This document shows positions 18,757 through 63,553 of a stretch of DNA of 64,000 bases, in pieces. How positions within the stretch are numbered: position 1 is the stretch's first letter; each line of letters starts with the position of its first letter. The DNA comes from Luteimonas deserti (lineage in GTDB: Bacteria > Pseudomonadota > Gammaproteobacteria > Xanthomonadales > Xanthomonadaceae). Made by a program: the position numbers and the translations under genes. Location of the stretch: positions 124,001 through 188,000 of the forward strand of contig NZ_JACCJZ010000010.1 in assembly GCF_013425765.1 (NCBI RefSeq), read 5' to 3'. The notes under the pieces were generated by a model. It was not told the origin of the DNA, made no database searches, and was given only the letters and a program-made list of their open reading frames with translations.

Positions 18757-19821
18757 TCAGGCGGCGCGGCCGAACCAGCGGCGCTGCATCCACAGCGCCA
18801 CATGCACCAGCAGTATCAGCACCGGCACCTCGACCAGCGGCCCGATGACGGCCGCGAACGCGACCGGCGAGGCCAGGCCGAAGGCCGCGATGGCGACCGC
18901 GATCGCCAGCTCGAAGTTGTTGCCGGCGGCCGTGAACGCGATCGCCGTCGTGCGCGGATAGTCCTTGGCGATCAGCCGGCCCATCCAGAAGCTCAGGACG
19001 AACTGCATCAGGAAGTACAGCGTCAGCGGGATCGCGATGCGCACCACGTCCATCGGAATCCGCACCACGTCGCCGCCCTTGAGGCTGAACATCGCGACGA
19101 TGGTGAACAGCAGCGCGGCCAGCGTGATCGGGCTGATCTTCGGGAGGAAGCGCGTCTCGTACCAGGCTTCGCCCTTGGATTTCACCAGCCAGCGCCGGGT
19201 CAGATAGCCGGCCAGGAACGGAATGCCGAGGTAGATCAGCACCGCCTGCGCGATGGTCCAGATGCTGACGTCGATGACGCTGCCTTCCAGCCCGAACACC
19301 GGCGGCAGCCAGCTCAGGAAGAACCAGGCGTACGCGCTGAAGAACAGGATCTGGAACACCGAGTTGAACGCGACCAGCCCGGCGACGTACTGGTTGTCGC
19401 CGCGCGCGAGCTGGTTCCACACCAGCACCATCGCGATGCAGCGGGCGAGGCCGATCAGGATCAGGCCGGTCATGTACTCGGGGTAGTCGCGCAGGAACAG
19501 CACCGCCAGCCCGAACATCAGGAACGGCCCGATCAGCCAGTTCTGCACCAGCGACAGCGCCAGCACGCGCTTGTCGCGGAACACGTTGGGCAGTTCCGCA
19601 TAGCGCACCTTGGCCAGCGGCGGATACATCATCAGGATCAGGCCGATCGCGATCGGGATGTTGGTGGTGCCCCAGCTCATCGCGTTCAGCGCGTCCGGCA
19701 GGCCGTCGAACAGCGTGCCCAGCGCGATGCCCAGCGCCATCGCCGCGAAGATCCACAGCGTCAGCCAGCGGTCGAGAAAGGACAGGCGGCCCGGCGCGGG
19801 TGCAGGCGCGGGCGTGCTCAT
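18757..19821 (-). CDS. acr3: Arsenite efflux permease of the ACR3 family
   Basis: 354 residues with about ten membrane helices. Exports arsenite produced by ArsC. Recognised from [20 protein letters not shown] near the N-terminus, [20 protein letters not shown] (with the conserved Cys) and [20 protein letters not shown]. The start overlaps the arsC stop by 4 bp; last gene of arsR-arsC-acr3 on the minus strand. Confidence 0.95.
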
Positions 19822-20309
19822 TCGACGTCGGCGATCGGTTCGAGCAGCGCCTTGACTGCGGCCTTGTCGGCCCAGACGTCATCGCGGATGTCGAGAAACG
19901 CGCGCAGGCGCTTCTGGATGATCGCGTGCGCCTCGGCAAAGGCGGCGCGCTTGTCGGCGTCGCTGCCGGTGACCGCGGCGGGGTCGAACAGGCCCCAGTG
20001 CACGCGGACGAAGTCACCGTGGACGATCGGGCAGCTTTCGCCGGCAGCACTGTCGCAGACGGTGACGATCAGGTCCATCGGCGCGGCGGTCTCGGCCGAG
20101 AACTCGTCCCAGGACTTGCTGCGCAGGTTGTCGGTGGGGAAACCTTCCCGCTGCAGCTGCTCGATCGCGAACGGGTTCACCTGGCCGGCCGGCTGGCTGC
20201 CGGCGCTGTAGGCATCAAAGCGGCCCACGCCCCAGGCGCGCAAGGTGGCTTCGGCCAGCACGCTGCGGGCGGAATTGCCGGTGCACAGGAACAGGACGCG
20301 TCGGGTCAT
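19818..20309 (-). CDS. arsC: Arsenate reductase, low-molecular-weight phosphatase type
   Basis: 163 residues from ATG 20309 (the upstream extension is low-complexity and unsupported). Reduces arsenate to arsenite. The anion-binding loop [10 protein letters not shown] at residues 7-16 has the CX5R signature of LMW tyrosine phosphatase-like ArsC, and the remaining motifs ([17 protein letters not shown]) include the later cysteines used to relay the disulfide. Lies between arsR and acr3. Confidence 0.93.
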
Positions 20310-20361
20310 GGGATGGCTCGCTGAGGGAATGAGTGATGGGGAGACGCAGTGCGGAACCGGT

Positions 20362-20685
20362 TCAGGGCGCGCAGCCGGCGGCCGGCGGGCACGCGCCCTC
20401 GTCGCCCGCACAACAGTTTTCGGTGAGGTAGCCGACCAGTGCGTTCATCGCGTCGAAGTCGGCGCGGTAGCAGATGGTCCGGCCGCGCTGCTCGCCGGTG
20501 ATGAGTCCGGCGCTGGCCAGTTCCTTGAGGTGGAACGACAGCGTCGCGCCCGGCAGGTCCAGCGCGGTGGCGATATCGCCGGCCAGACGCCCGCTGCGGC
20601 CGGCCTGCACCAGCAGGCGGAAGACGGCGAGCCGGGTGCTGTGGCCGAGCGCCGAAAGCGCGCCGGTTGCGGTTTCATGTTCCAT
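20362..20685 (-). CDS. arsR: ArsR-family transcriptional repressor
   Basis: 107 residues. ATG at 20685 (MEHETATGALSALGHSTRL) chosen over an upstream ATG at 20706 because the conserved domain begins there. The winged helix includes LDLPGATLSFHLKELASAGL. The arsenite-binding cysteines are probably the C-terminal pair NCCAGDEGACPPAAGCAP, an arrangement that differs from the helix-3 site of E. coli ArsR and recalls the C-terminal sites seen in other ArsR proteins. It should repress its own operon and arsH, which diverges 43 bp away. Confidence 0.9.
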   Translation of the reverse strand: MEHETATGALSALGHSTRLAVFRLLVQAGRSGRLAGDIATALDLPGATLSFHLKELASAGLITGEQRGRTICYRADFDAMNALVGYLTENCCAGDEGACPPAAGCAP

Positions 20686-20728
20686 ATTTCTAGAATAGTC
20701 GAACATTTATGACCGCAACAAGTCGCCG
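20686..20728. promoter_or_regulatory. arsR-arsH divergent promoter/operator
   Basis: The 43-bp gap between the divergent starts is markedly AT-rich compared with its surroundings and contains the perfect palindrome TTCTAGAA at 20688-20695. A shared ArsR operator here would allow co-induction of both units by arsenite. Inferred from position and symmetry only. Confidence 0.5.
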
Positions 20729-21463
20729 ATGACCTCCGATCTGCCCAATCTCGTGCCCGCCGCGTTCAAGCCCGTCGACCCGGTGGCCCTCGGCGCGCCG
20801 GCCGGCGGCCATCGGCCGCGCATCCTGATCCTCTACGGCTCGCTGCGCCCCGAGTCCTACAGCCGCAAGCTCGCGCTCGAGGCGCAGCGGCTGCTCGAGC
20901 TGTTCGGCGCGGAGACGCGGCTGTTCGATCCCAGCGAGCTGCCGATGCTCGATTCGGTGCCGGCCATGCACCCGAAGGTGCAGGAGCTGCGTGCGCTTTC
21001 GATGTGGTCGGAAGGCCAGGTCTGGGTGAGCCCCGAACGCCACGGCGCGCCGACGGCGGTGTTCAAGAACCAGATCGACTGGCTGCCGCTGGAAAGCGGC
21101 GGCATGCGTCCCACCCAGGGCCGCACGCTGGCGGTGATGCAGGTCTGCGGTGGCTCGCAGTCGTTCAACGTGGTCAATGCGCTGCGCCTGCTGGGCCGCT
21201 GGATGCGCATGGTCACCATCCCCAACCAGTCCTCGGTGCCCAAGGCCTGGCAGGAATTCGACGAGGCCGGGCGGATGAAGCCGTCGGCGTACTACGACCG
21301 CGTGGTCGACGTGATGGAGGAGCTGGTGCGCTTCACCTGGCTGGTGCGCGACCGCAGCGAGCTGCTGACCGACCGCTACAGCGAGCGGGTCGGCGATGTG
21401 GCGGCCGCGATGCTGGCCGCGCGCTCGGGTGCGCAGGTCGCGTCCGCATCGGCTGCGGACTAG
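20729..21463 (+). CDS. arsH: Arsenical resistance protein ArsH (NADPH-dependent FMN reductase)
   Basis: 244 residues, flavodoxin-like fold. Contains [20 protein letters not shown], the FMN phosphate-binding segment, and the ArsH-specific [20 protein letters not shown]. ArsH oxidises trivalent organoarsenicals or acts as a quinone/azo reductase, broadening resistance. Divergent from arsRC-acr3. Confidence 0.94.
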
Positions 21464-21627
21464 GCATTACGGCGCGCGAAGCCGGGATGCTCCTGCCCGG
21501 TTGCGGGACAATTTCTGTACTCGCCAGTTCACTGGCTGGGTTAAGATTCAGTGTGTTCTCGCCATGCTCTTCGGGTTGCGCGCCTGCCGCACCTGCGCGA
21601 ACCGCTTCCGCCCTTTCGTTGGATTCC

Positions 21628-22425
21628 ATGCCCGATTCCCAGGCTCCTGCCGTGCTGCTGCGTGACGTCCGCCTCGAGCGGGGCGGGCGCACCGTGCTGT
21701 CGGGCATCGATCTCTCGGTGCCACGCGGCAGCGTGACCGCGGTTCTCGGGCCGTCGGGAAGCGGCAAGTCGACGCTGTTGTCGGCGCTGACCGGCGAGCT
21801 GGTGCCGGCCGCCGGCACGGTCGAGGTCTTCGGTCAGCGCGTGCCGACACGCACCCGTGACCTGCTCGAACTGCGCAAGCGGATCGGCGTGCTGCTGCAG
21901 GGCAACGGCCTGCTCACCGATCTCACCGCGGGCGACAACATCGCGCTGCCGTTGCGGCTGCACACCAAGTTGCCGAAGCCGGTGATCGCGCGCCTCGTGG
22001 CGATGAAGCTGCAGGCGGTGGGCCTGCGCGCCGCGGCCGGCCTGTTCCCGCGCGAGCTGTCGGGCGGCATGGCGCGCCGCGTGGCGCTGGCGCGCGCGCT
22101 GGCGCTCGATCCGCCGCTGATGATCTACGACGAGCCGCTGACCGGGCTGGACCCGATCGCCTCGGGCGTGATCATGAGCCTGATCGGCCGCCTCAACGCC
22201 TCGCTCGGGCTGACCAGCATCATCGTCACCCACCACGTGCACGAGACGCTGCCGGTGGCCGACCACGCGATCGTGATCGCCAACGGTCGCATCGTGTTCC
22301 AGGGCACGCCGGCTGCGCTCGAGGCCAGCGAGGATCCGCTGGTGCGCCAGTTCCTGCGCGGCGAGCCCGACGGGCCCATCGCATTCGACCGCGGCGATCT
22401 CGCCCCCACGGAGGCCGCGCGATGA
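21628..22425 (+). CDS. mlaF: Mla phospholipid transport ATP-binding protein MlaF
   Basis: 265 residues. ATPase of the Mla complex that moves phospholipids between the outer and inner membrane and maintains outer-membrane asymmetry. Walker A GPSGSGKST at 41-49, signature LSGGMARRVALARAL, Walker B LMIYDEPLTGLD and a switch His in IVTHHVHETLPV. Start ATG 21628 (MPDSQAPAVLLRDVRLERGG) matches family length. First gene of mlaFEDCB-A; stop and mlaE start overlap by 4 bp. Confidence 0.95.
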   Translation: MPDSQAPAVLLRDVRLERGGRTVLSGIDLSVPRGSVTAVLGPSGSGKSTLLSALTGELVPAAGTVEVFGQRVPTRTRDLLELRKRIGVLLQGNGLLTDLTAGDNIALPLRLHTKLPKPVIARLVAMKLQAVGLRAAAGLFPRELSGGMARRVALARALALDPPLMIYDEPLTGLDPIASGVIMSLIGRLNASLGLTSIIVTHHVHETLPVADHAIVIANGRIVFQGTPAALEASEDPLVRQFLRGEPDGPIAFDRGDLAPTEAAR

Positions 22426-23165
22426 CCGCTGCGATCCGCTCGCTCGGCCGCGCCGGGTTGTTCTCGCTGTCGGTGCTGCGCGCGTCGAAGCCGACCGCCG
22501 ATTTCTTCTCCGAGCTGCTGCGCGAGATCTACAAGATCGGCGGCCGCTCCCTGCCGATCATCGCCGTTGGCGGTGCCTTCGTCGGGCTGTCGCTGACCCT
22601 GCTGGGCTACCGCGCGCTGGAAACCTACGGCGCCAGCAACCAGGTCAGCGTGCTGATCGGCCTGGGCCTGTATCGCGAACTGGCGCCGGTGCTGACCGCG
22701 CTGCTGTTCGTCGGGCGCGCCGGCAGTTCGATCGCCGCCGAACTCGGCCTGATGCGTGCGACCGACCAGATCACCGCGCTCGGCCTGATGGCGATCGATC
22801 CGGTGGCCAAGGCGGTGGCGCCGCGGTTCTGGGCCGCGGTGATCTGCGTGCCGCTGCTGACCGCGTTCTTCTGCAGCCTCGCGCTGTCGGCGAGCTGGTT
22901 CCAGGCGGTGCAGATCCTCGGCATCGACAACGGCATGTTCTGGCAGGCGATGCAGGACGCGGTCGACTTCCGCGGCGATTTCCTGATCGCGTTCGTGAAA
23001 TCGGCGGTGTTCGGCGGCATCGCGGCGCTGGTCGCCTCGTATGTGGGCTTCCACGCCGAGCCGACGATCGAGGGCACCTCGGTGGCTACGACGCGTGCGG
23101 TGGTCAATGCCTCGCTGCTGGTGCTGATGTTCAATTTCGTGATGTCGGCCTTCCTGTTCCGCTGA
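22422..23165 (+). CDS. mlaE: Mla permease MlaE
   Basis: 247 residues, inner-membrane permease with the family hallmarks ALLFVGRAGSSIAAELGLMR and TDQITALGLMAIDPVAKAVA. Pairs with MlaF; binds phospholipid from MlaD. Followed by a 73-bp gap to mlaD. Confidence 0.95.
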   Translation: MTAAIRSLGRAGLFSLSVLRASKPTADFFSELLREIYKIGGRSLPIIAVGGAFVGLSLTLLGYRALETYGASNQVSVLIGLGLYRELAPVLTALLFVGRAGSSIAAELGLMRATDQITALGLMAIDPVAKAVAPRFWAAVICVPLLTAFFCSLALSASWFQAVQILGIDNGMFWQAMQDAVDFRGDFLIAFVKSAVFGGIAALVASYVGFHAEPTIEGTSVATTRAVVNASLLVLMFNFVMSAFLFR

Positions 23166-23238
23166 CCGCCAGGTCGCGGCTGAACCGCCTCCATTCCATT
23201 CACCGCCCTGTCGGCGGTCTGCTGCAAAGGTGATTCCC

Positions 23239-23793
23239 ATGACAAGCGCCCGTGGTCCCCGTCTCGAGTTCGCCGTCGGTGCGTTTCTGCTGCTGGCGCT
23301 CGCGTCGCTGCTGGTGCTGGCGATGGCCTCGACCAACGGCCAGTTCGGGTTCGTCCGTGGCGGCACCTACGAGCTCAGTGCGCGCTTCAGCAACCTCGGC
23401 CAGCTGCGCCCCAATGCGCCGGTGAAGATCGGTGGCGTGACCATCGGCCGGGTGTCGAAGATCGATCTGGATCCGGTGCGCTTCGATTCGATCGTGACCC
23501 TGGCGGTGCAGGAGCGCTTCAACGAGATTCCTGCCGACACGTCCGCGGCGATCCTCACCGGCGGCCTGCTCGGCGAGAGCTATGTCGGCCTGTCCCCGGG
23601 CGGCGATCTCGAAGCGCTGCAGCCGGGCGAGGAGATCGCGTTCACCTCCCCGGCGGTGGACCTGATCCAGATGGTCGGCAAGTACATGTTCAGCGGTGGC
23701 GGCGCAGACGCCGGCGCCGCACCGTCGACGGACGATCCGTACGACACCGCGTCCCCCGACGCGTCCCCCCGTGACGAAGGAGTGCTTCCATGA
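23239..23793 (+). CDS. mlaD: Mla MCE-domain protein MlaD
   Basis: 184 residues. ATG 23239 is preceded by AAAGG at a good distance, better than the GTG at 23230. A single N-terminal helix (FAVGAFLLLALASLLVLAMA) anchors it, followed by the MCE domain (YELSARFSNLGQLRPNAPVK; ILTGGLLGESYVGLSPGGD). MlaD forms a hexameric ring in the periplasm that receives lipid from MlaC. The last 30 residues are low-complexity acidic/Ala. Its stop overlaps mlaC. Confidence 0.94.
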   Translation: MTSARGPRLEFAVGAFLLLALASLLVLAMASTNGQFGFVRGGTYELSARFSNLGQLRPNAPVKIGGVTIGRVSKIDLDPVRFDSIVTLAVQERFNEIPADTSAAILTGGLLGESYVGLSPGGDLEALQPGEEIAFTSPAVDLIQMVGKYMFSGGGADAGAAPSTDDPYDTASPDASPRDEGVLP

Positions 23794-24461
23794 TCCGCAT
23801 GACCCTGATCCGCCGCGCGCTGCCGCTGGCGCTCGCCGCCGCCTTGTCCCTGCCCGCCATCGCCTTCGCCCAGCAGGCCGCGCCGGCCACCGCGCAGGCC
23901 GCCAATGCGCAGGCCGGGGCGCCCAGCCGCCTGGTGCTGGCCAACAGCGAGCGCGTGCTCAAGACCCTGGAATCGCGCCGTGCCGAGTTCACCCGGGACC
24001 GTGCCGCGCTGCAGCGGTTCATCACGGGCGAGTTCGACACGATGTTCGACCGCGACTACGCCGCCCGCCAGGTGCTGGGCCGGCATGCGCGCGGCGCCTC
24101 GGATGCCGACGTCAAGATCTTCGGCGACGCGTTGGCCGAGAACCTGATGCGCCGCTACGGCTCGTCGCTGCTCGACTTCAACACCCAGCTGCGCGTGCGC
24201 ATCAAGTCCGAGACGCCGTTGCCGCGCGGTCTGGGCGTGCGCGTGTCGAGCGAACTGCTGCGCAGCGGCGGCGAGCCGATCCCCGTGGACTACCTGATGC
24301 GCCAGAGCGGTGGCGGCTGGAAGGTATTCGACGTGATGGTCGAAGGCGTCTCCTTCGTCCGTACGTTCCGTGACCAGTTCGACCCGCAGCTGCAGCGCAA
24401 GTCGATCCCCGAAGTCGCGCGCGAGCTGCGCAGCGGCCAGATCCAGGCCACCGCCGAGTGA
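23790..24461 (+). CDS. mlaC: Mla periplasmic lipid-binding protein MlaC
   Basis: 223 residues. Signal peptide ending IAFA-QQAAPA around residue 28. MlaC/Ttg2D fold with FITGEFDTMFDRDYAARQVL and the conserved VFDVMVEGVSFV near the C-terminus. Shuttles phospholipid between the outer-membrane MlaA and inner-membrane MlaD. Overlaps both neighbours by 4 bp. Confidence 0.93.
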   Translation: MIRMTLIRRALPLALAAALSLPAIAFAQQAAPATAQAANAQAGAPSRLVLANSERVLKTLESRRAEFTRDRAALQRFITGEFDTMFDRDYAARQVLGRHARGASDADVKIFGDALAENLMRRYGSSLLDFNTQLRVRIKSETPLPRGLGVRVSSELLRSGGEPIPVDYLMRQSGGGWKVFDVMVEGVSFVRTFRDQFDPQLQRKSIPEVARELRSGQIQATAE

Positions 24462-24748
24462 GTCACGCGCCTGCGGCCTCGGTGCGGCGTGACGGCGACG
24501 CGCTGGCCGTCTCCGGCGTGGTTGCGGCTGCGTCCGTGCCCGCGTTGTGGGCGCAGGCGGCGCCGCTGCGGGCCGGGGCGACGCGTCTCGACCTGCACGC
24601 CGTCAGCGCGGTCGACAGCGCCGGGCTCGCCCTGTTGGCCGAGCTGGCCGATGCCGGCGGGCTGACGGTGGACGGTTCGCCGCCGGGACTGGCCGACCTG
24701 TGCGGCGCGTACCGTCTGACTCCGGCGTTGGGCTTCGTGTCGGCCTGA
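24458..24748 (+). CDS. mlaB: Mla STAS-domain protein MlaB
   Basis: 96 residues, single STAS domain (ATRLDLHAVSAVDSAGLALL contains the conserved DSAGL). Binds MlaF and stabilises the transporter. Overlaps mlaC by 4 bp; 50 bp upstream of mlaA. Confidence 0.9.
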   Translation: MSHAPAASVRRDGDALAVSGVVAAASVPALWAQAAPLRAGATRLDLHAVSAVDSAGLALLAELADAGGLTVDGSPPGLADLCGAYRLTPALGFVSA

Positions 24749-24798
24749 GCCGTCGCCCGTCGCCCGCTATCGCCCCCATCGTTCCACTGGACCCTCCC

Positions 24799-25917
24799 AT
24801 GGCGACGCCTTCCCAGATCCGCCTGATCGCGCCGCTGCTCGCGGCCGCCGTGTTGTCCGCCTGCGCCGGTACGGGCACGCCGCGTGATCGTGTGCCGCCG
24901 CCCAGTGCCGCGATCGACGACGCGGAAACCCGTGTGTCGCCCGCGCCGGGTGACGTGCCGACCGTGGCCGATGCCGAAGGCGCCGATGTGCCGGCCGCGC
25001 CGGACACCGGCGAGGTCATCGCCGCGTTCGACGAAGCGGCCCGCGTTGCCGGCGACGCCACGCCGGCCGGCGGCACGCCGGTTGACGGCCTGCCCGCGAA
25101 CGGCACGCCGACCGAGGCCGAGCTCGACTACGCGGCGCTGTATGGCGAGCCCGTTTACGACCCGGTGGCCGATCCCACGCTGCCCGATGCGGCGCAGATG
25201 CCGCGCAGCTACGACCCCTGGGAGCCGCTCAACCGGCGCGTGTTCGCGTTCAACAGCGCCATCGATCGCGGCATCGCGACGCCGCTGGCGCGCGCCTACG
25301 TGGCCGTGGTGCCACGACCGGTGCGCCTGGGCGTGGGCAATTTCTTCAGCAATCTCGGTCAGCCGGTCAGCGCGGTCAATGCACTGCTGCAGGGCAGGCC
25401 CAAGGCGGCCGGGCAGTCGCTGGGGCGGTTCCTGATCAACAGTACGCTGGGCATCGGCGGCATCTTCGACCCGGCATCGGATGCGGACATTCCGCACCGT
25501 GACGCCGATTTCGGGCAGACGCTCGGCGTGTGGGGCTGGCGTAATTCGCGCTACGTCGAACTGCCGCTGTTCGGTCCGCGCACGCTGCGCGACGGTTTCG
25601 GCCTCGTGGGCGATGCGCCGCTTTCGCCCATGCGACAGATCGGCGACGACACCGTTCGCTTCGGCCTGCAGGGCCTGCAGCTGGTGGACCTGCGCACGCG
25701 CCTGTTCGCATTGGACAGCATGCGGCTGGGTGCCACCGACGAGTACGCATTGATCCGCGATGCCTGGATGCAGCGGCGCGCCTACCAGATCGAATCGGTC
25801 CGGCGCAGCCGCGACGAGCAGGACGATCTGCCGGACTATCTCTACGAGGACGACGCCATGCCCACTGTGCCGGTGGACGTGATGCCGGTGATCCCCGGCG
25901 TGCCGACCCCCCCCTGA
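24799..25917 (+). CDS. mlaA: Mla outer-membrane lipoprotein MlaA (VacJ)
   Basis: 372 residues. Lipoprotein signal peptide with lipobox LSAC at residues 19-22. About 110 residues of Ala/Pro/Asp-rich linker precede the VacJ domain (DPWEPLNRRVFAFNSAIDRG; RFLINSTLGIGGIFDPASD; GVWGWRNSRYVELPLFGPRT), and a Pro/Val tail follows. Removes phospholipid from the outer leaflet and hands it to MlaC. Inclusion of mlaA in the same operon as mlaFEDCB is typical of this family, unlike E. coli. Terminator directly behind. Confidence 0.94.
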   Translation: MATPSQIRLIAPLLAAAVLSACAGTGTPRDRVPPPSAAIDDAETRVSPAPGDVPTVADAEGADVPAAPDTGEVIAAFDEAARVAGDATPAGGTPVDGLPANGTPTEAELDYAALYGEPVYDPVADPTLPDAAQMPRSYDPWEPLNRRVFAFNSAIDRGIATPLARAYVAVVPRPVRLGVGNFFSNLGQPVSAVNALLQGRPKAAGQSLGRFLINSTLGIGGIFDPASDADIPHRDADFGQTLGVWGWRNSRYVELPLFGPRTLRDGFGLVGDAPLSPMRQIGDDTVRFGLQGLQLVDLRTRLFALDSMRLGATDEYALIRDAWMQRRAYQIESVRRSRDEQDDLPDYLYEDDAMPTVPVDVMPVIPGVPTPP

Positions 25918-25936
25918 GTCCGGCTCCTCCGATCGA

Positions 25937-25963
25937 AGCCCCGCTGATGCGGGGCTTTTTTTT
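25937..25963 (+). terminator. Intrinsic terminator of the mla operon
   Basis: AGCCCCGC, loop TGAT, GCGGGGCT, then eight T residues, 20 bp after the mlaA stop. Textbook Rho-independent terminator. Confidence 0.95.
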
Positions 25964-26056: not shown

Positions 26057-26128
26057 TGTCGGGTTTTGCCTGACATGACCTCTGGCAGGGTGGTGTTATC
26101 GAACGGTGGTGTTGTAGTCTACCAACAC
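26057..26128 (+). promoter_or_regulatory. AT-rich promoter/operator region of the five-peptide array
   Basis: The stretch from about 26030 is far more AT-rich than the flanks. Visible elements: an imperfect inverted repeat TGTCGGG-TTTTG-CCTGACA (26057-26075); a candidate -35 CTGACA (26070-26075) and -10 TGTTAT (26094-26099) with 18-bp spacing; a 9-bp direct repeat GGTGGTGTT at 26089-26097 and 26105-26113; and an inverted repeat GTGTTG...CAACAC (26109-26114/26123-26128). The first peptide gene starts 31 bp later after a CGGAG ribosome-binding site. Repeats straddling the predicted start of transcription suggest control by a dimeric regulator. Inferred, not proven. Confidence 0.5.
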
Positions 26129-26158
26129 ACCAGATCACAACCACACGGAGCAACCGCC

Positions 26159-26314
26159 ATGCAGACCCAGACCACCCCCCAGATCCCCGCCCGCAGCTTC
26201 GACCTCGGCGCCCGTAGCCGCGCGTTCGGCACCGGTTACGGCCGCAGCAGCGGGTACGGCACCCCGCGCACCTACAGCCAGCCTTCCGTGCCGGCCCGCT
26301 TCCGCGTCGTCTGA
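26159..26314 (+). CDS. Array peptide 1 (Gly/Tyr/Arg/Ser-rich small protein)
   Basis: 51 residues, with a CGGAG ribosome-binding site 5-9 bases before the ATG. First of five consecutive tiny genes. The N-terminus (MQTQTTPQIPARSFDLGARS) is unique to this copy; the second half contains GYGRSSGYGTPRTYS and ends VPARFRVV, shared with copies 2 and 3. Strongly basic, no hydrophobic segment, no Cys. I do not recognise the family. It is too short for routine gene callers; the case for coding rests on paralogy with its neighbours. Confidence 0.75.
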   Translation: MQTQTTPQIPARSFDLGARSRAFGTGYGRSSGYGTPRTYSQPSVPARFRVV

Positions 26315-26343
26315 CCCTCGACCCCCACGACGAGACCACCGCC

Positions 26344-26475
26344 ATGAACCGCATCCACGCCACCCGTTCCGCCTCCCCCCGTCCCTTCGGCGCCAGCTAC
26401 GGCCGCAGCAGCGGGTACGGCACTCCGCGCAGCTACGGCCAGGCCTCGGTGCCGGCCCGCTTCCGCGTCGTCTGA
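26344..26475 (+). CDS. Array peptide 2
   Basis: 43 residues, start MNRIHATRSASPRPFG, core ASYGRSSGYGTPRSYG, end VPARFRVV. Thirty bases after the stop of copy 1; the leader CACGACGAGACCACCGCC before the ATG is repeated before copy 3. Only weak purine-rich ribosome-binding sequence (GACGAGA) is present, so translation could be coupled to the preceding gene. Predicted pI is very basic from Arg residues. Function unknown. Confidence 0.78.
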   Translation: MNRIHATRSASPRPFGASYGRSSGYGTPRSYGQASVPARFRVV

Positions 26476-26503
26476 CCCCCGACCCCACGACGAGACCACC
26501 GCC

Positions 26504-26635
26504 ATGAATCGCATCCACGCCAGCCGTCCCACCGTCCCCCGTCCGTTCGGCGCCAGCTACGGCCGCAGCAGCGGGTACGGCACCCCGCGCAGCTACGGCC
26601 GGACCTCGGTGCCGGCCCGCTTCCGCGTCGTCTGA
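26504..26635 (+). CDS. Array peptide 3
   Basis: 43 residues, start MNRIHASRPTVPRPFG, core ASYGRSSGYGTPRSYG, end VPARFRVV. The period from copy 2 is 160 bp. Near-identical to copy 2 at DNA level over the core, with changes concentrated in the N-terminal third and the residues before the C-terminal motif. Recent duplication or gene conversion is likely. Confidence 0.78.
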   Translation: MNRIHASRPTVPRPFGASYGRSSGYGTPRSYGRTSVPARFRVV

Positions 26636-26661
26636 CCTGCGCTCCCCTCGAGACCACCGTC

Positions 26662-26793
26662 ATGAACCGCATCCACGCCAGCCGTTCCGCCTCACCCCGT
26701 CCCTTCGGCGCCAGCTATGGCCGCAGCAGTGGTTATGGCACCCCGCGCAGCTACAGCCAGGCCCCTGTGCCCAGCCGCTTTCGCATCGCCTGA
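26662..26793 (+). CDS. Array peptide 4
   Basis: 43 residues, start MNRIHASRSASPRPFG, core ASYGRSSGYGTPRSYS, end VPSRFRIA. Within YGRSSGYG the codons differ from copy 3 almost only at third positions (TAC/TAT, AGC/AGT, GGG/GGT, TAC/TAT) while the peptide is unchanged. That pattern is what selection on the protein, rather than on DNA or RNA, would leave. The C-terminus varies conservatively (A to S, V to I). Confidence 0.8.
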   Translation: MNRIHASRSASPRPFGASYGRSSGYGTPRSYSQAPVPSRFRIA

Positions 26794-26830
26794 TCTTCCG
26801 CTGGCGATCCATCCTCCGTCAGGACCCGCC

Positions 26831-27001
26831 ATGAACCGCAATCACGCCATCGTGCACGCCGCCGCCCAGCAATCCGTGGCCGAGGACCTTCCGGCCGTCC
26901 CGACCGCCCGCAGCGCGATCCCTGCGGCCATCTGCGACACGCGTCGCCTGCCGCCCCGCCGCAGCCCGCGCGCACTGCCGAGCCGCTTCCGCATCCTCTG
27001 A
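26831..27001 (+). CDS. Array peptide 5 (divergent member)
   Basis: 56 residues. Shares the MNRNHA start and the LPSRFRIL end with copies 2-4, but the YGRSSGYG core is replaced by an Ala/Val/Pro-rich segment (HAAAQQSVAEDLPAVPTARS) with one Cys. Conservation of only the two termini suggests these are the functional or recognition parts, with a variable middle. Preceded by CAGGAC as a possible ribosome-binding site. Followed at 27002-27016 by the inverted repeat GGCCGGC-T-GCCGGCC. Confidence 0.65.
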   Translation: MNRNHAIVHAAAQQSVAEDLPAVPTARSAIPAAICDTRRLPPRRSPRALPSRFRIL

Positions 27002-27333: not shown

Positions 27334-27750
27334 ATGTTCCGAAAGACCACCACGGTCGACCAGCTCAACGCGATGTCGGCCGGCACCGCCATCGCCACCC
27401 TCGGCATCGTGTTCACCGAGATCGGCGAGGATCTGCTGCGTGCCACGATGCCGGTCGATGCACGCACCCATCAGCCGTACGGCCTGCTGCACGGCGGTGC
27501 ATCCGCACTGCTGGCGGAAACGCTCGGCAGTTCCGCCGGCGGCCTGGCTGCGCCCGAAGGCTTCGGTGTCGTCGGCATCGAGATCAACGCCAACCATCTG
27601 CGCGCGGTGCGCAGCGGCAGCGTCACCGGTACGGCGCGCCCGCTGCACGTCGGTCGGACCACCCAGGTCTGGGACATCCGCATCGACGATGCCGACGGGC
27701 GCCCGGTGTGCGTGTCGCGGCTGACGCTCGCGGTGATCCCGACACCGTGA
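27334..27750 (+). CDS. Hotdog-fold acyl-CoA thioesterase (PaaI/MenI-YdiI type)
   Basis: 138 residues, single hotdog domain. Contains YGLLHGGASALLAETLGSSA with the catalytic HGG and Glu positions of the YdiI/EntH group, and VGIEINANHLRAVRSGSVTG. Likely hydrolyses aromatic or medium-chain acyl-CoA, such as 1,4-dihydroxy-2-naphthoyl-CoA, but the substrate is unassigned. Stands alone, 55 bp before the acyltransferase gene. Confidence 0.85.
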   Translation: MFRKTTTVDQLNAMSAGTAIATLGIVFTEIGEDLLRATMPVDARTHQPYGLLHGGASALLAETLGSSAGGLAAPEGFGVVGIEINANHLRAVRSGSVTGTARPLHVGRTTQVWDIRIDDADGRPVCVSRLTLAVIPTP

Positions 27751-27805: not shown

Positions 27806-28609
27806 ATGACGTCCCCCCCCATGCCCGCACGCGCCGGCGGCCTGCCTGCGCGCGCACTGCGCTATGCGGTCCGCGTGCCCCTGTTGCTGTGGCACGTGTT
27901 CGTGCACCTGCCGGTGGTGCTGCTGCTCGGTGCGCCGCCATTGGCGCGTCGTCGCTGGGCAAGCGGAGATCCGCCCGGGCATCGCGCGATCCGCTGGTGG
28001 CAGGGCGGCCTGATGCGGCTCTTCGGTTTCCGCCTGCGCCGGATCGGGACGCCTCTGCCCGGTGCGGTGCTGTTCGTCGCCAACCACGTGAGCTGGATCG
28101 ACATATCCGCGTTGCACAGCCAACGCATGATGGGATTCGTCGCCAAGCGCGAGATCGCCGGCTGGCCTGTGGTGGGCTGGCTGGCCGCGCGCGGCGACAC
28201 CATCTTCCACCAGCGCGGCAACCAGGAATCCCTCGGCGGCGTGCTCGAGGCGATGCTCGGCCGCCTGCGTGCCGGGCAGGCCGTGGGTGTCTTTCCCGAG
28301 GGGCGCACCCGCGGCGGGGACCGCGTCGGCCCGTTCCACGCGCGGATCTTCCAGGCCGCGGTGCAGGGCAACGTCGCGGTGCAGCCGGTGGCGCTGCGCT
28401 ACGGCGCCGGTGGCTGCGCGCAGACCATCGTCGCCTTCGGCGAACGCGAGTCGTTCTTCGCCAATTTCATGCGCCTGCTCGGCGAGCCGGCGCGCGAGGC
28501 CGAGGTCGTGTTCCTCGAGCCGATCCTGCCGGGCAATACCGAAGGCCGGCGGCGTATGGCCGAGCTGTCGCGCGAGCGCATCGTGGCCGCGCTGGGTCCG
28601 GTGGGATGA
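27806..28609 (+). CDS. 1-acyl-sn-glycerol-3-phosphate acyltransferase (PlsC family)
   Basis: 267 residues. An N-terminal membrane helix (PLLLWHVFVHLPVVLLLG), catalytic HX4D in FVANHVSWIDIS, and substrate motif VGVFPEGRTRGGD. Converts lysophosphatidate to phosphatidate or acylates a related lipid. Its stop overlaps the YheT-like start (ATGA), implying a two-gene operon in lipid metabolism. Confidence 0.88.
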   Translation: MTSPPMPARAGGLPARALRYAVRVPLLLWHVFVHLPVVLLLGAPPLARRRWASGDPPGHRAIRWWQGGLMRLFGFRLRRIGTPLPGAVLFVANHVSWIDISALHSQRMMGFVAKREIAGWPVVGWLAARGDTIFHQRGNQESLGGVLEAMLGRLRAGQAVGVFPEGRTRGGDRVGPFHARIFQAAVQGNVAVQPVALRYGAGGCAQTIVAFGERESFFANFMRLLGEPAREAEVVFLEPILPGNTEGRRRMAELSRERIVAALGPVG

Positions 28610-63450: not shown

Positions 63451-63553
63451 TGGAGCCCCTGGTCGGAATCGAACCGACGTGGCCGCGCTTATCTGGCGCG
63501 TGCTTTCACCGGAGTATAAGGCCGGCGCTTAAACCAACGTAAGCAGCAGGGGC
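63451..63553 (-). tRNA. tRNA-like gene with long variable arm, tentative anticodon UAU
   Basis: Reading the minus strand: acceptor GCCCCTG pairs perfectly with CAGGGGC before an encoded TCCA end (discriminator T + CCA); D-arm GCTT-ACGTTGGTTT-AAGC; anticodon arm CCGGC-CTTATAC-TCCGG with one C-T mismatch, giving UAU (Ile, AUA) at 34-36 with U33 and A37; about 30-nt variable region with stem CGCGC-CAGATAA-GCGCG; T-arm GTCGG-TTCGATT-CCGAC. Oddities: position 8 is C instead of U, and a 30-nt variable arm is normal only for Leu, Ser and Tyr tRNAs. May be a divergent mobile-element tRNA or a tRNA-like RNA. Confidence 0.6.

What the first reader, a model, noticed from the sequence alone, without database searches (positions are those of the whole stretch)
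26159..27001. Tandem array of five tiny genes encoding a new-looking family of Gly/Tyr/Arg/Ser-rich peptides
Five consecutive ORFs (51, 43, 43, 43 and 56 codons) share a pattern: an MNRIHA-type N-terminus in copies 2-5, a core YGRSSGYGTPRSY in copies 1-4 and a (V/L)P(A/S)RFR(V/I)x C-terminus in all five. Between copies 3 and 4 most changes in the core are synonymous (TAC/TAT, AGC/AGT, GGG/GGT), which is evidence for selection on the peptide. None has a transmembrane segment or signal peptide; they are strongly basic. The Tyr/Gly/Ser-Arg core resembles low-complexity RNA-binding or condensate-forming segments, while the fixed C-terminus resembles a recognition tag. I know of no described family with this layout. 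Options: nucleic-acid-binding peptides, precursors of modified peptides, or dual-function RNAs.
Basis: seen in the sequence. Interest (0 to 1): 0.88.

Follow-up and report, generated by a model that had tools for sequence, protein, structure and literature searches.

The report
Tandem genes for detached protein tails
Luteimonas, Lysobacter and related bacteria carry tiny genes, here repeated side by side, for short arginine-, tyrosine- and glycine-rich peptides whose sequence also forms the tail of a larger conserved protein, and these free peptides are predicted to work by binding whatever that tail binds.

Summary
The array is real: five tandem ORFs, four with the core YGRSSGYGTPR-Y, all five ending in RFR plus two residues. 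They belong to a large uncatalogued family (no Pfam or NCBIfam hit; 2146 protein clusters in a profile search), seen almost only in Lysobacterales.

First, the same module, RxRDFGxGYGxSSGYA...Y...F-x-F, is the C-terminal tail of a ~203-aa YkvA/DUF1232 protein often encoded next to the peptides (profile-profile E 8e-20). This Luteimonas genome has four free tails and no detectable DUF1232 gene. Free peptides also occur in four genomes of two other families of the order whose DUF1232 lacks the motif, so the free peptide may be the older form. Second, many of the genes share a ~55-nt upstream element: of 86 block-2 sites in 149 family genomes, 75 lie 18-129 nt upstream of a listed peptide match.

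Core and C-terminus are under purifying selection (pooled dN/dS 0.29-0.50), the linker hardly (0.69-0.89). AlphaFold gives the peptide no fold.

Best explanation: disordered tail modules that act in trans on the partner of the DUF1232 tail. The partner is unknown and the mechanism inferred; family, element and shared tail are shown.

The parts
26076..26086 (+). Upstream element, block 1 (TGACCTCTGGC here; TGACTTCCGGCcCAT in many relatives), in the position of a class II activator site
   Evidence: Block 1 pattern found in 59 of 64 distinct upstream regions, starting 33-37 nt before the TGTA of block 2; exact form TGACTTCCGGCNCATG at 30 sites in 149 family genomes, reversed control 2; not in the window's own genome, whose block 1 is a variant. 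Activator role inferred.
26108..26131 (+). Upstream element, block 2 GGTGTTGTAGTCTACCAACACACC, with a -10-like TAGTCT at 26115-26120; likely core promoter/operator of the array
   Evidence: 86 sites (up to one mismatch) in 79 of 149 genomes, reversed control 0; 75 sites 18-129 nt upstream of a listed peptide match. Only such site in own genome (with 3 mismatches shows nothing above control). Promoter function inferred.
26159..26314 (+). Copy 1, 51 aa, MQTQTT... N-terminus, full core
   Evidence: profile E 5.9e-20 in the window
26344..26475 (+). Copy 2, 43 aa
26504..26635 (+). Copy 3, 43 aa
26662..26793 (+). Copy 4, 43 aa; AlphaFold model without fold (pTM 0.18, mean pLDDT 63)
26831..27001 (+). 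Copy 5, 56 aa, coreless relative with N-terminus MNRNHA and C-terminus PSRFRIL
   Evidence: coreless relatives in L009-L011, L014, L017, L018, with pN below pS in the seven pairs tested among them
25935..25958 (+). Terminator-like hairpin plus T run after mlaA, likely separating the array from the mla genes
   Evidence: 1 found, 0.6 expected in shuffles
24643..25917 (+). Upstream neighbour: MlaA lipoprotein gene
   Evidence: PF04333 E 2.1e-69
27334..27750 (+). Downstream neighbour: hotdog thioesterase; in relatives with DUF1232 at this locus that gene usually lies just before it
   Evidence: PF03061 E 6.9e-18; gene order
27806..28609 (+). Downstream neighbour: PlsC-like acyltransferase
   Evidence: PF01553 E 4.3e-22

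Best explanation
The array encodes free copies of a short, predicted-disordered Arg/Tyr/Gly module that in related bacteria also forms the C-terminal tail of a YkvA/DUF1232 protein, and these free tails likely act in trans by occupying the partner which that tail binds. Shown: the four cored copies, the shared module, the dedicated upstream element, the selection on core and C-terminus, and that no DUF1232 gene is detectable in this (draft, 20-contig) genome. Inferred: the element is a regulated promoter that sets the dose of the peptides (a class II activator site plus a -10 overlapped by an inverted repeat). The peptides would bind the tail's partner through R/Y/F contacts with GYGxSSGY and the terminal F-x-F/RFR. 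Where DUF1232 is present they would compete with or supplement its tail; where it is lost, as here, free copies would keep the partner supplied. The partner is most likely an anionic surface such as RNA, ribosome or membrane, or a protein; nothing here decides which.
For: Tail identity: read directly in 17 DUF1232 proteins (three have MG for FG), hhalign probability 99.2, E 8.1e-20 over 34 columns for 15 tails against 18 free peptides; all 7 same-genus DUF1232 genes beside the thioesterase have the tail (at least two of these genomes are also). Domain PF06803 in 4 of 4 tested. Neighbourhood: a listed free peptide 95-827 nt upstream of DUF1232 in 13 of 65 genomes with a strong ortholog. Persistence without the body: own genome has no PF06803 hit at E<=0.01 and no body hit (completeness 100); of 149 family genomes, 44 have listed free peptides and no strong DUF1232 ortholog, 39 have both, 26 only the ortholog, 40 neither. 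Promoter. The frame differs between genomes while the DNA element stays (VVVYQHT in the window, WCCSLPAH in L020), so it is conserved as DNA, not as peptide. Selection: 50 nearest pairs, core 0.29, C-terminus 0.37, linker 0.69 (some DUF1232 tails included); 50 looser pairs of free peptides only, 0.45 (0.34-0.58), 0.50 (0.34-0.71), 0.89 (0.77-1.02). Disorder: tail residues 171-190 pLDDT 43-56 against 77-89 for most body blocks, peptide pTM 0.18.
Against: No partner is known and none was found. Free peptides also live in genomes whose fetched DUF1232 lacks the motif (L204, L206, L207, L208), so the peptide has a function that does not need the tailed DUF1232; the tail may have been borrowed from the peptide rather than the reverse. 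Outside the lipid-gene locus the peptides sit beside unrelated genes, so the neighbours give no function. The two forms are not mutually exclusive (39 genomes have both), and copy number gives little support: among genomes with at least one listed free peptide the mean is 1.66 without and 1.36 (53 copies in 39 genomes) with the ortholog. Whole-peptide dN/dS is only 0.72, and 1.01 in unscreened pairs. No transcript or peptide was observed by any tool.
Confidence: 0.4

Rival explanations
1. Autonomous RNA- or DNA-binding, condensate-forming peptides: the Arg and Tyr of [G/S]Y[G/S] units bind nucleic acid and phase separate, and the DUF1232 tail is just one more carrier of this activity.
For: pI 11.6-12.0, charge +5.5 to +7.6; no fold; GYG and SGY or SGW units beside Arg-rich flanks, also in the outgroup-family copies. 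Outgroup DUF1232 tails are mostly basic and Gly/Ser/Arg-rich too.
Against: The core is more conserved than low-complexity binding needs: in FGxGYGxSSGY of 40 free peptides seven letters are invariant and two more at least 90%. No nucleic-acid assay or neighbour supports it.
Confidence: 0.22
2. Cationic peptides of the cell envelope that bind phospholipid or a lipid enzyme and tune phospholipid turnover together with their neighbours (PLD-like or MlaA, thioesterase, PlsC-like acyltransferase).
For: Thioesterase next to the motif in 87 of 105 loci examined (several loci are the same genome fetched twice); an ORF cluster whose L049 member is PLD-like lies upstream in 52 of 76 loci (cluster 2; only the L049 member was tested).
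Against: 16 loci with the peptide have no mlaA, thioesterase or acyltransferase match; in six of them ten flanking ORFs were tested, nine had Pfam hits and all nine are unrelated. The array here is set off from mlaA by a terminator-like site and ends 332 nt before the thioesterase.
Confidence: 0.14
3. Precursor peptides of a modified natural product: the GYGxSSGY core is modified and cleaved.
For: Tandem copies, conserved core, more variable N-terminal part.
Against: No modification or export gene among the tested neighbours; the same core stands near the end of a 203-aa protein; the part C-terminal to the core is also conserved.
Confidence: 0.05
4. The transcript, not the peptide, is the functional molecule: the conserved upstream blocks are part of a regulatory RNA and the ORFs are passengers.
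For: The upstream element is more conserved than the peptides' linkers.
Against: Core and C-terminus keep their amino acids, with changes concentrated at codon position 3 (83/75/173 in the core); the only Rfam match is a tRNA; the spacing of the two blocks stays within 33-37 nt, as expected of DNA sites; a -10-like TANNNT lies inside block 2.
Confidence: 0.06

Closest known systems
YkvA/DUF1232 proteins (Pfam PF06803)
   Same: Members in the Luteimonas-Lysobacter family carry the very same module as their C-terminal tail.
   Different: The free peptides lack the DUF1232 domain (no Pfam hit at E<=1). Two literature searches found 3 papers with 'DUF1232' and 2 with 'YkvA' (search listings only); none by its title is about the function of this family in bacteria.
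DUF1127 small proteins (YjiS and relatives)
   Same: Often under 50 aa; Arg-rich; A. tumefaciens has three small ones; they act through protein-protein contacts, e.g. with PhoR (PMC12501420, abstract and outline seen). YjiS is 54 aa and inner-membrane associated (PMC11707872, abstract and outline seen).
   Different: No Pfam match of any kind (DUF1127 is PF06568 from memory); motif GYGxSSGY and an RFR end instead.
microProteins (single-module proteins related to part of a larger protein, acting by competition; concept recalled)
   Same: Short, share one module with a larger protein, may compete for its partner.
   Different: The shared module is a predicted-disordered tail, not a dimerisation domain; tandem copies with a private promoter element; retained where the larger protein is absent.
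FUS/RGG-type low-complexity segments (recalled)
   Same: [G/S]Y[G/S] units near Arg.
   Different: Short, position-specific, nearly invariant core; no repeat expansion except double-core variants (P0005, P0020, P0025).

Membership tests
YkvA/DUF1232 (PF06803) | DUF1232 domain in the protein | tested here: not met
   No Pfam match for any of the five peptides at E<=1
YkvA/DUF1232 (PF06803) | Shares the C-terminal tail of the family members at this locus | tested here: met
   hhalign 99.2, E 8.1e-20; direct reading
DUF1127 / YjiS | Match to the DUF1127 domain model | tested here: not met
   no family at E<=1 for the five peptides
microProtein | Small protein related by sequence to part of a larger protein | tested here: met
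microProtein | Acts by competing with, or poisoning a complex of, the larger protein | not testable with these tools
   Needs binding and genetics
RiPP precursor | Modification or export gene in the neighbourhood | tested here: not met
   Neighbours tested are Mla genes, thioesterase, acyltransferase, hydrolase; the rest of the window was not scanned with Pfam
Regulatory RNA | Match to a known RNA family | tested here: not met
   Whole window at gathering thresholds: only a tRNA
Condensate-forming RNA-binding peptide | Binds RNA / phase separates | not testable with these tools
   Only composition and lack of fold are known

The most novel reading that the evidence does not exclude
A free disordered peptide, driven by its own promoter found in three families of the order, was captured as the C-terminal tail of a YkvA/DUF1232 protein and in this Luteimonas has outlived and replaced it: a 'tail' that circulates as an independent, dose-controlled molecule and is shared in trans, so that a protein's tail is its functional part and its folded body is optional.
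Probability: 0.3. Interest if true: 0.82.

Novelty: new variant of a known kind. Interest (0 to 1): 0.66.

Why it matters
Small proteins are among the least charted parts of bacterial genomes. This is a family with listed free members in 83 of 149 sampled family genomes, no curated model in Pfam or NCBIfam, a recognisable private promoter element, and a link by sequence to an uncharacterised conserved protein (YkvA/DUF1232). The set-up makes a question directly testable: can a disordered tail work on its own, detached from its protein, and be supplied by tandem gene copies? It also gives a handle on YkvA: find the partner of the peptide and the partner of the YkvA tail is likely found too.

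Tried and rejected
Rejected: chance ORFs (controls; homologs with frame kept in many genomes). Rejected: conservation of the upstream block as an N-terminal extension of copy 1 (different reading frames in different genomes). Rejected: a genome-wide regulon of block 2 in this genome: apart from the array's own exact site, a shorter pattern with up to 3 mismatches gives only ten 3-mismatch sites, the same number as the reversed control. Rejected as a real member: L037 (G040), a weak hit that the profile does not confirm. Led nowhere: PDB sequence search of DUF1232 (best E 0.3); Foldseek against PDB (97 matches at E<=10, 0 at E<=0.001); sigma-70 scan (0 sites); a CRP/Clp-like reading of block 1 (mean 6.9 of 10 letters against 5.05 in shuffles, but the 64 sequences are related, so weak); literature searches for the family (search listings only; nothing on these peptides seen).

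Against my own reading: an all-pairs dN/dS gave median 1.01 (6410 pairs). I then took nearest independent pairs and split core, C-terminus and linker, because divergent GC-rich pairs are likely saturated at synonymous sites; this choice was made after seeing the first result. The 64 regions were collected with the pattern T[GT]TANNNTACCA[AG]CAC, so those letters are conserved by selection of the rows; the flanking GGTGT, ACC and CAC are not. Element exceptions: 11 of 86 sites were not near a listed match. Of the five fetched, L163 is a frameshifted peptide gene, L170 (G134) lies before an Arenimonas-type peptide that appears, L173 precedes another gene, L164 and L184 look like chance; six were not fetched. 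Exact block 1: 25 of 30 sites are at peptide genes; the others are L240, L241, L242, L244, L247; the reversed control gave 2 sites.

Full report
What is in the window. Five tandem ORFs on the + strand, 26159-27001; copies 1-4 repeat with a ~160-nt unit. Copies 1-4 carry the core YGRSSGYGTPR-Y; all five end in P-x-RFR plus two residues. The peptides are basic (pI 11.6-12.0) and match nothing in Pfam or NCBIfam at E<=1. A terminator-like hairpin at 25935-25958 separates them from mlaA; downstream follow a hotdog thioesterase, a PlsC-like acyltransferase and an alpha/beta hydrolase. No Rfam family other than a tRNA was found in the window. Chance is excluded by the internal repeats, by the profile controls and by the homologs.

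A large uncatalogued family. With copy 4 as query, 34 of 61 genomes had a match at E<=0.01: the window's own, 31 of 36 same-genus genomes and 2 of 24 from other families of the order (some matches are DUF1232 tails, and one of the two outgroup hits, G040, was not confirmed). A profile of 18 free peptides found 2146 protein clusters at E<=0.1; the taxon names in the 120 listed are Lysobacterales genera or higher ranks that include them, apart from one Cupriavidus and one Pseudomonas label. A scan of one genome per species gave 75 loci (free peptide or tailed DUF1232), nearly all in Lysobacter, Luteimonas, Thermomonas, Arenimonas, Vulcaniibacterium, Aquimonas and Chiayiivirga or in MAGs of that group; a few MAGs carry other labels, Cupriavidus, Rhizobium, or only a class or phylum name. 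In 149 genomes drawn evenly from the family, 113 match the profile at E<=1e-3, in 42 of 54 genera, and 36 do not (tails of DUF1232 are included). A search with an outgroup profile gave 369 clusters at E<=0.01; the names seen in the 120 listed are of Xanthomonadales. The approximate consensus is M-N-x(15-35)-R-x-R-D-F-G-x-G-Y-G-x-S-S-G-Y-A-x2-R-x-Y-x(6-9)-R-F-R-x-A. Free members run from about 40 to 85 aa; double-core variants exist (P0005, P0020, P0025).

The same module is a protein tail. Several short matches proved to be the C-terminus of a ~203-aa protein with a DUF1232 (PF06803) domain. All 17 such proteins read in the named loci carry the tail, three with MG for FG, and so do the 7 same-genus DUF1232 genes beside the thioesterase (at least two of these genomes are also). 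Profile-profile comparison of 15 tails and 18 free peptides gives probability 99.2, E 8.1e-20 over 34 columns. AlphaFold gives DUF1232 a seven-helix body and leaves residues 171-190 at pLDDT 43-56; window copy 4 has pTM 0.18, mean pLDDT 63 and no regular structure beyond three residues. Foldseek finds no solved relative of the body at E<=0.001.

Where body and free tail occur. In 105 loci (window, 29 G loci, 75 named loci; several are one genome fetched twice) the thioesterase is nearby in 87 and a DUF1232 body in 23. The commonest order is peptide(s), thioesterase, acyltransferase (55 loci). Where DUF1232 is present it lies between peptide and thioesterase in 12, before the thioesterase without a cored peptide in 9, and after the thioesterase in 2. 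An ORF cluster whose L049 member is PLD-like lies upstream in 52 of 76 loci. Sixteen loci have the peptide without a match to mlaA, thioesterase or acyltransferase; ten flanking ORFs in six of them were tested and nine had Pfam hits, all to unrelated genes. The window genome (20 contigs, completeness 100) has no DUF1232 hit by family model at E<=0.01 or by body sequence. Among 149 family genomes, 44 have listed free peptides and no strong DUF1232 ortholog (E<1e-45), 39 have both, 26 have only the ortholog and 40 show neither; among those with at least one listed free peptide the mean copy number is 1.66 without and 1.36 with the ortholog, a small difference. The printed match list was cut near E 4e-8, so weaker free peptides are not counted; free and tail were told apart by distance to the DUF1232 body.

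Which came first. Of 22 DUF1232-type proteins fetched from other families of the order, none has the GYG motif; most end in a basic Gly/Ser/Arg-rich tail, often FSLF, FSLW or FRFR. Yet four genomes of two of these families (G037, G048, G057, G049) have free peptides with block 1 or block 2, or a variant of them, upstream, while their own fetched DUF1232 lacks the motif. The simplest reading is that the free peptide is older and was captured by DUF1232 in the Luteimonas-Lysobacter family; loss of the motif from outgroup tails is not excluded, and no rooted tree was made. In the order-wide sample 22 of 250 genomes matched at E<=1e-4, 18 of them of the window's own family, so outgroup peptides are uncommon or too diverged for this profile.

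A private promoter element. Upstream of the first peptide gene lies a ~55-nt element: block 1 TGACTTCCGGCcCAT and, 33-37 nt after its start, block 2 tGGTGTTGTASWYTACCARCACACC, followed by CAC (64 distinct regions chosen by part of block 2; block 1 recognised in 59). Block 2 (one mismatch allowed) occurs at 86 sites in 79 of 149 genomes, with 0 for the reversed pattern; 75 of 86 lie 18-129 nt upstream of a listed peptide match on the same strand, and one more (G134) is accounted for. Exact block 1 occurs at 30 sites in 30 genomes, 25 of them at peptide genes, with 2 for the reversed pattern. In the window genome block 2 is unique. The frame in which the element would be translated differs between genomes, so it is conserved as DNA. 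Geometry suggests (inferred) a -10 TANNNT inside block 2, flanked by the inverted repeat GTGTTG...CAACAC, and an activator site at block 1. Block 2 was not found, under the strict pattern used, before the peptide in L054-L056, L076, L093, L094, L097 and L101, and 70 of 149 genomes have no block 2 site at all.

Selection. Nei-Gojobori on 50 nearest independent pairs gave pooled dN/dS of 0.29 (core, 947 codons), 0.37 (last five codons) and 0.69 (linker) (this set includes some DUF1232 tails). On 50 looser pairs of free peptides only: 0.45 (bootstrap 0.34-0.58), 0.50 (0.34-0.71), 0.89 (0.77-1.02), all sites 0.72. All cross-locus pairs with 0.1<dS<1 had a median of 1.01 (6410 pairs); I attribute this to saturation in GC-rich codons and to the free-running linker, which is an inference. 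Copy 5 belongs to a coreless class with relatives in at least six other loci; pN is below pS in all seven pairs tested among those relatives.

Mechanism. Shown: family, module shared with the DUF1232 tail, upstream element, selection on core and C-terminus, persistence without a detectable DUF1232. Inferred: the peptides act in trans at the partner of the tail, with dose set by promoter and copy number. Not shown: partner, expression, phenotype. Rivals are nucleic-acid or condensate peptides, envelope peptides tied to the lipid genes, modified-peptide precursors, and a functional RNA.

Comparison with the known. They resemble in size and basicity the DUF1127 proteins, for which protein-protein contact with PhoR has been reported (PMC12501420, abstract and outline), but do not match that family. 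They work, if the model is right, like microProteins, with the unusual feature that the shared part is a disordered tail and that it survives without the larger protein. Papers on DUF1232 or YkvA were few (3 and 2) and, by their listings, none deals with these peptides; these searches cover open-licence PMC papers only.

Noticed in passing
window 21610-25917: Complete-looking mla phospholipid transport cluster (ABC ATPase, MlaE, MlaD, MlaC, STAS protein, MlaA) directly upstream of the array.
   Followed up: partly
L163 about 1490-1770: A second peptide gene in genome G071 with intact upstream element but a frame break in the core: a decaying copy.
   Followed up: partly
L241 and L242 at 1501: Exact block 1 (TGACTTCCGGCACATG) about 60 nt before a signal-peptidase-like ORF (name recalled from its sequence) in two genomes of one genus: a possible second target of the same regulator.
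   Followed up: no
L244 at 1501 (- strand): Block 1 plus GGTGTTGTA in front of an unrelated membrane-protein-like ORF.
   Followed up: no
P0005, P0020, P0025: Free peptides of 83-84 aa with the core written twice in a row and an FRCR end.
   Followed up: no
L157 (genome G024): A diverged DUF1232 paralog whose C-terminus ends in AARFRVH, like the free peptides' end without the core.
   Followed up: no
window 19818-21463: ORFs that look like an arsenic-resistance set (ArsC-like, ArsR-like and ArsH-like), judged from sequence alone.
   Followed up: no
window 63451-63523: tRNA-Ile (GAT) on the - strand.
   Followed up: no
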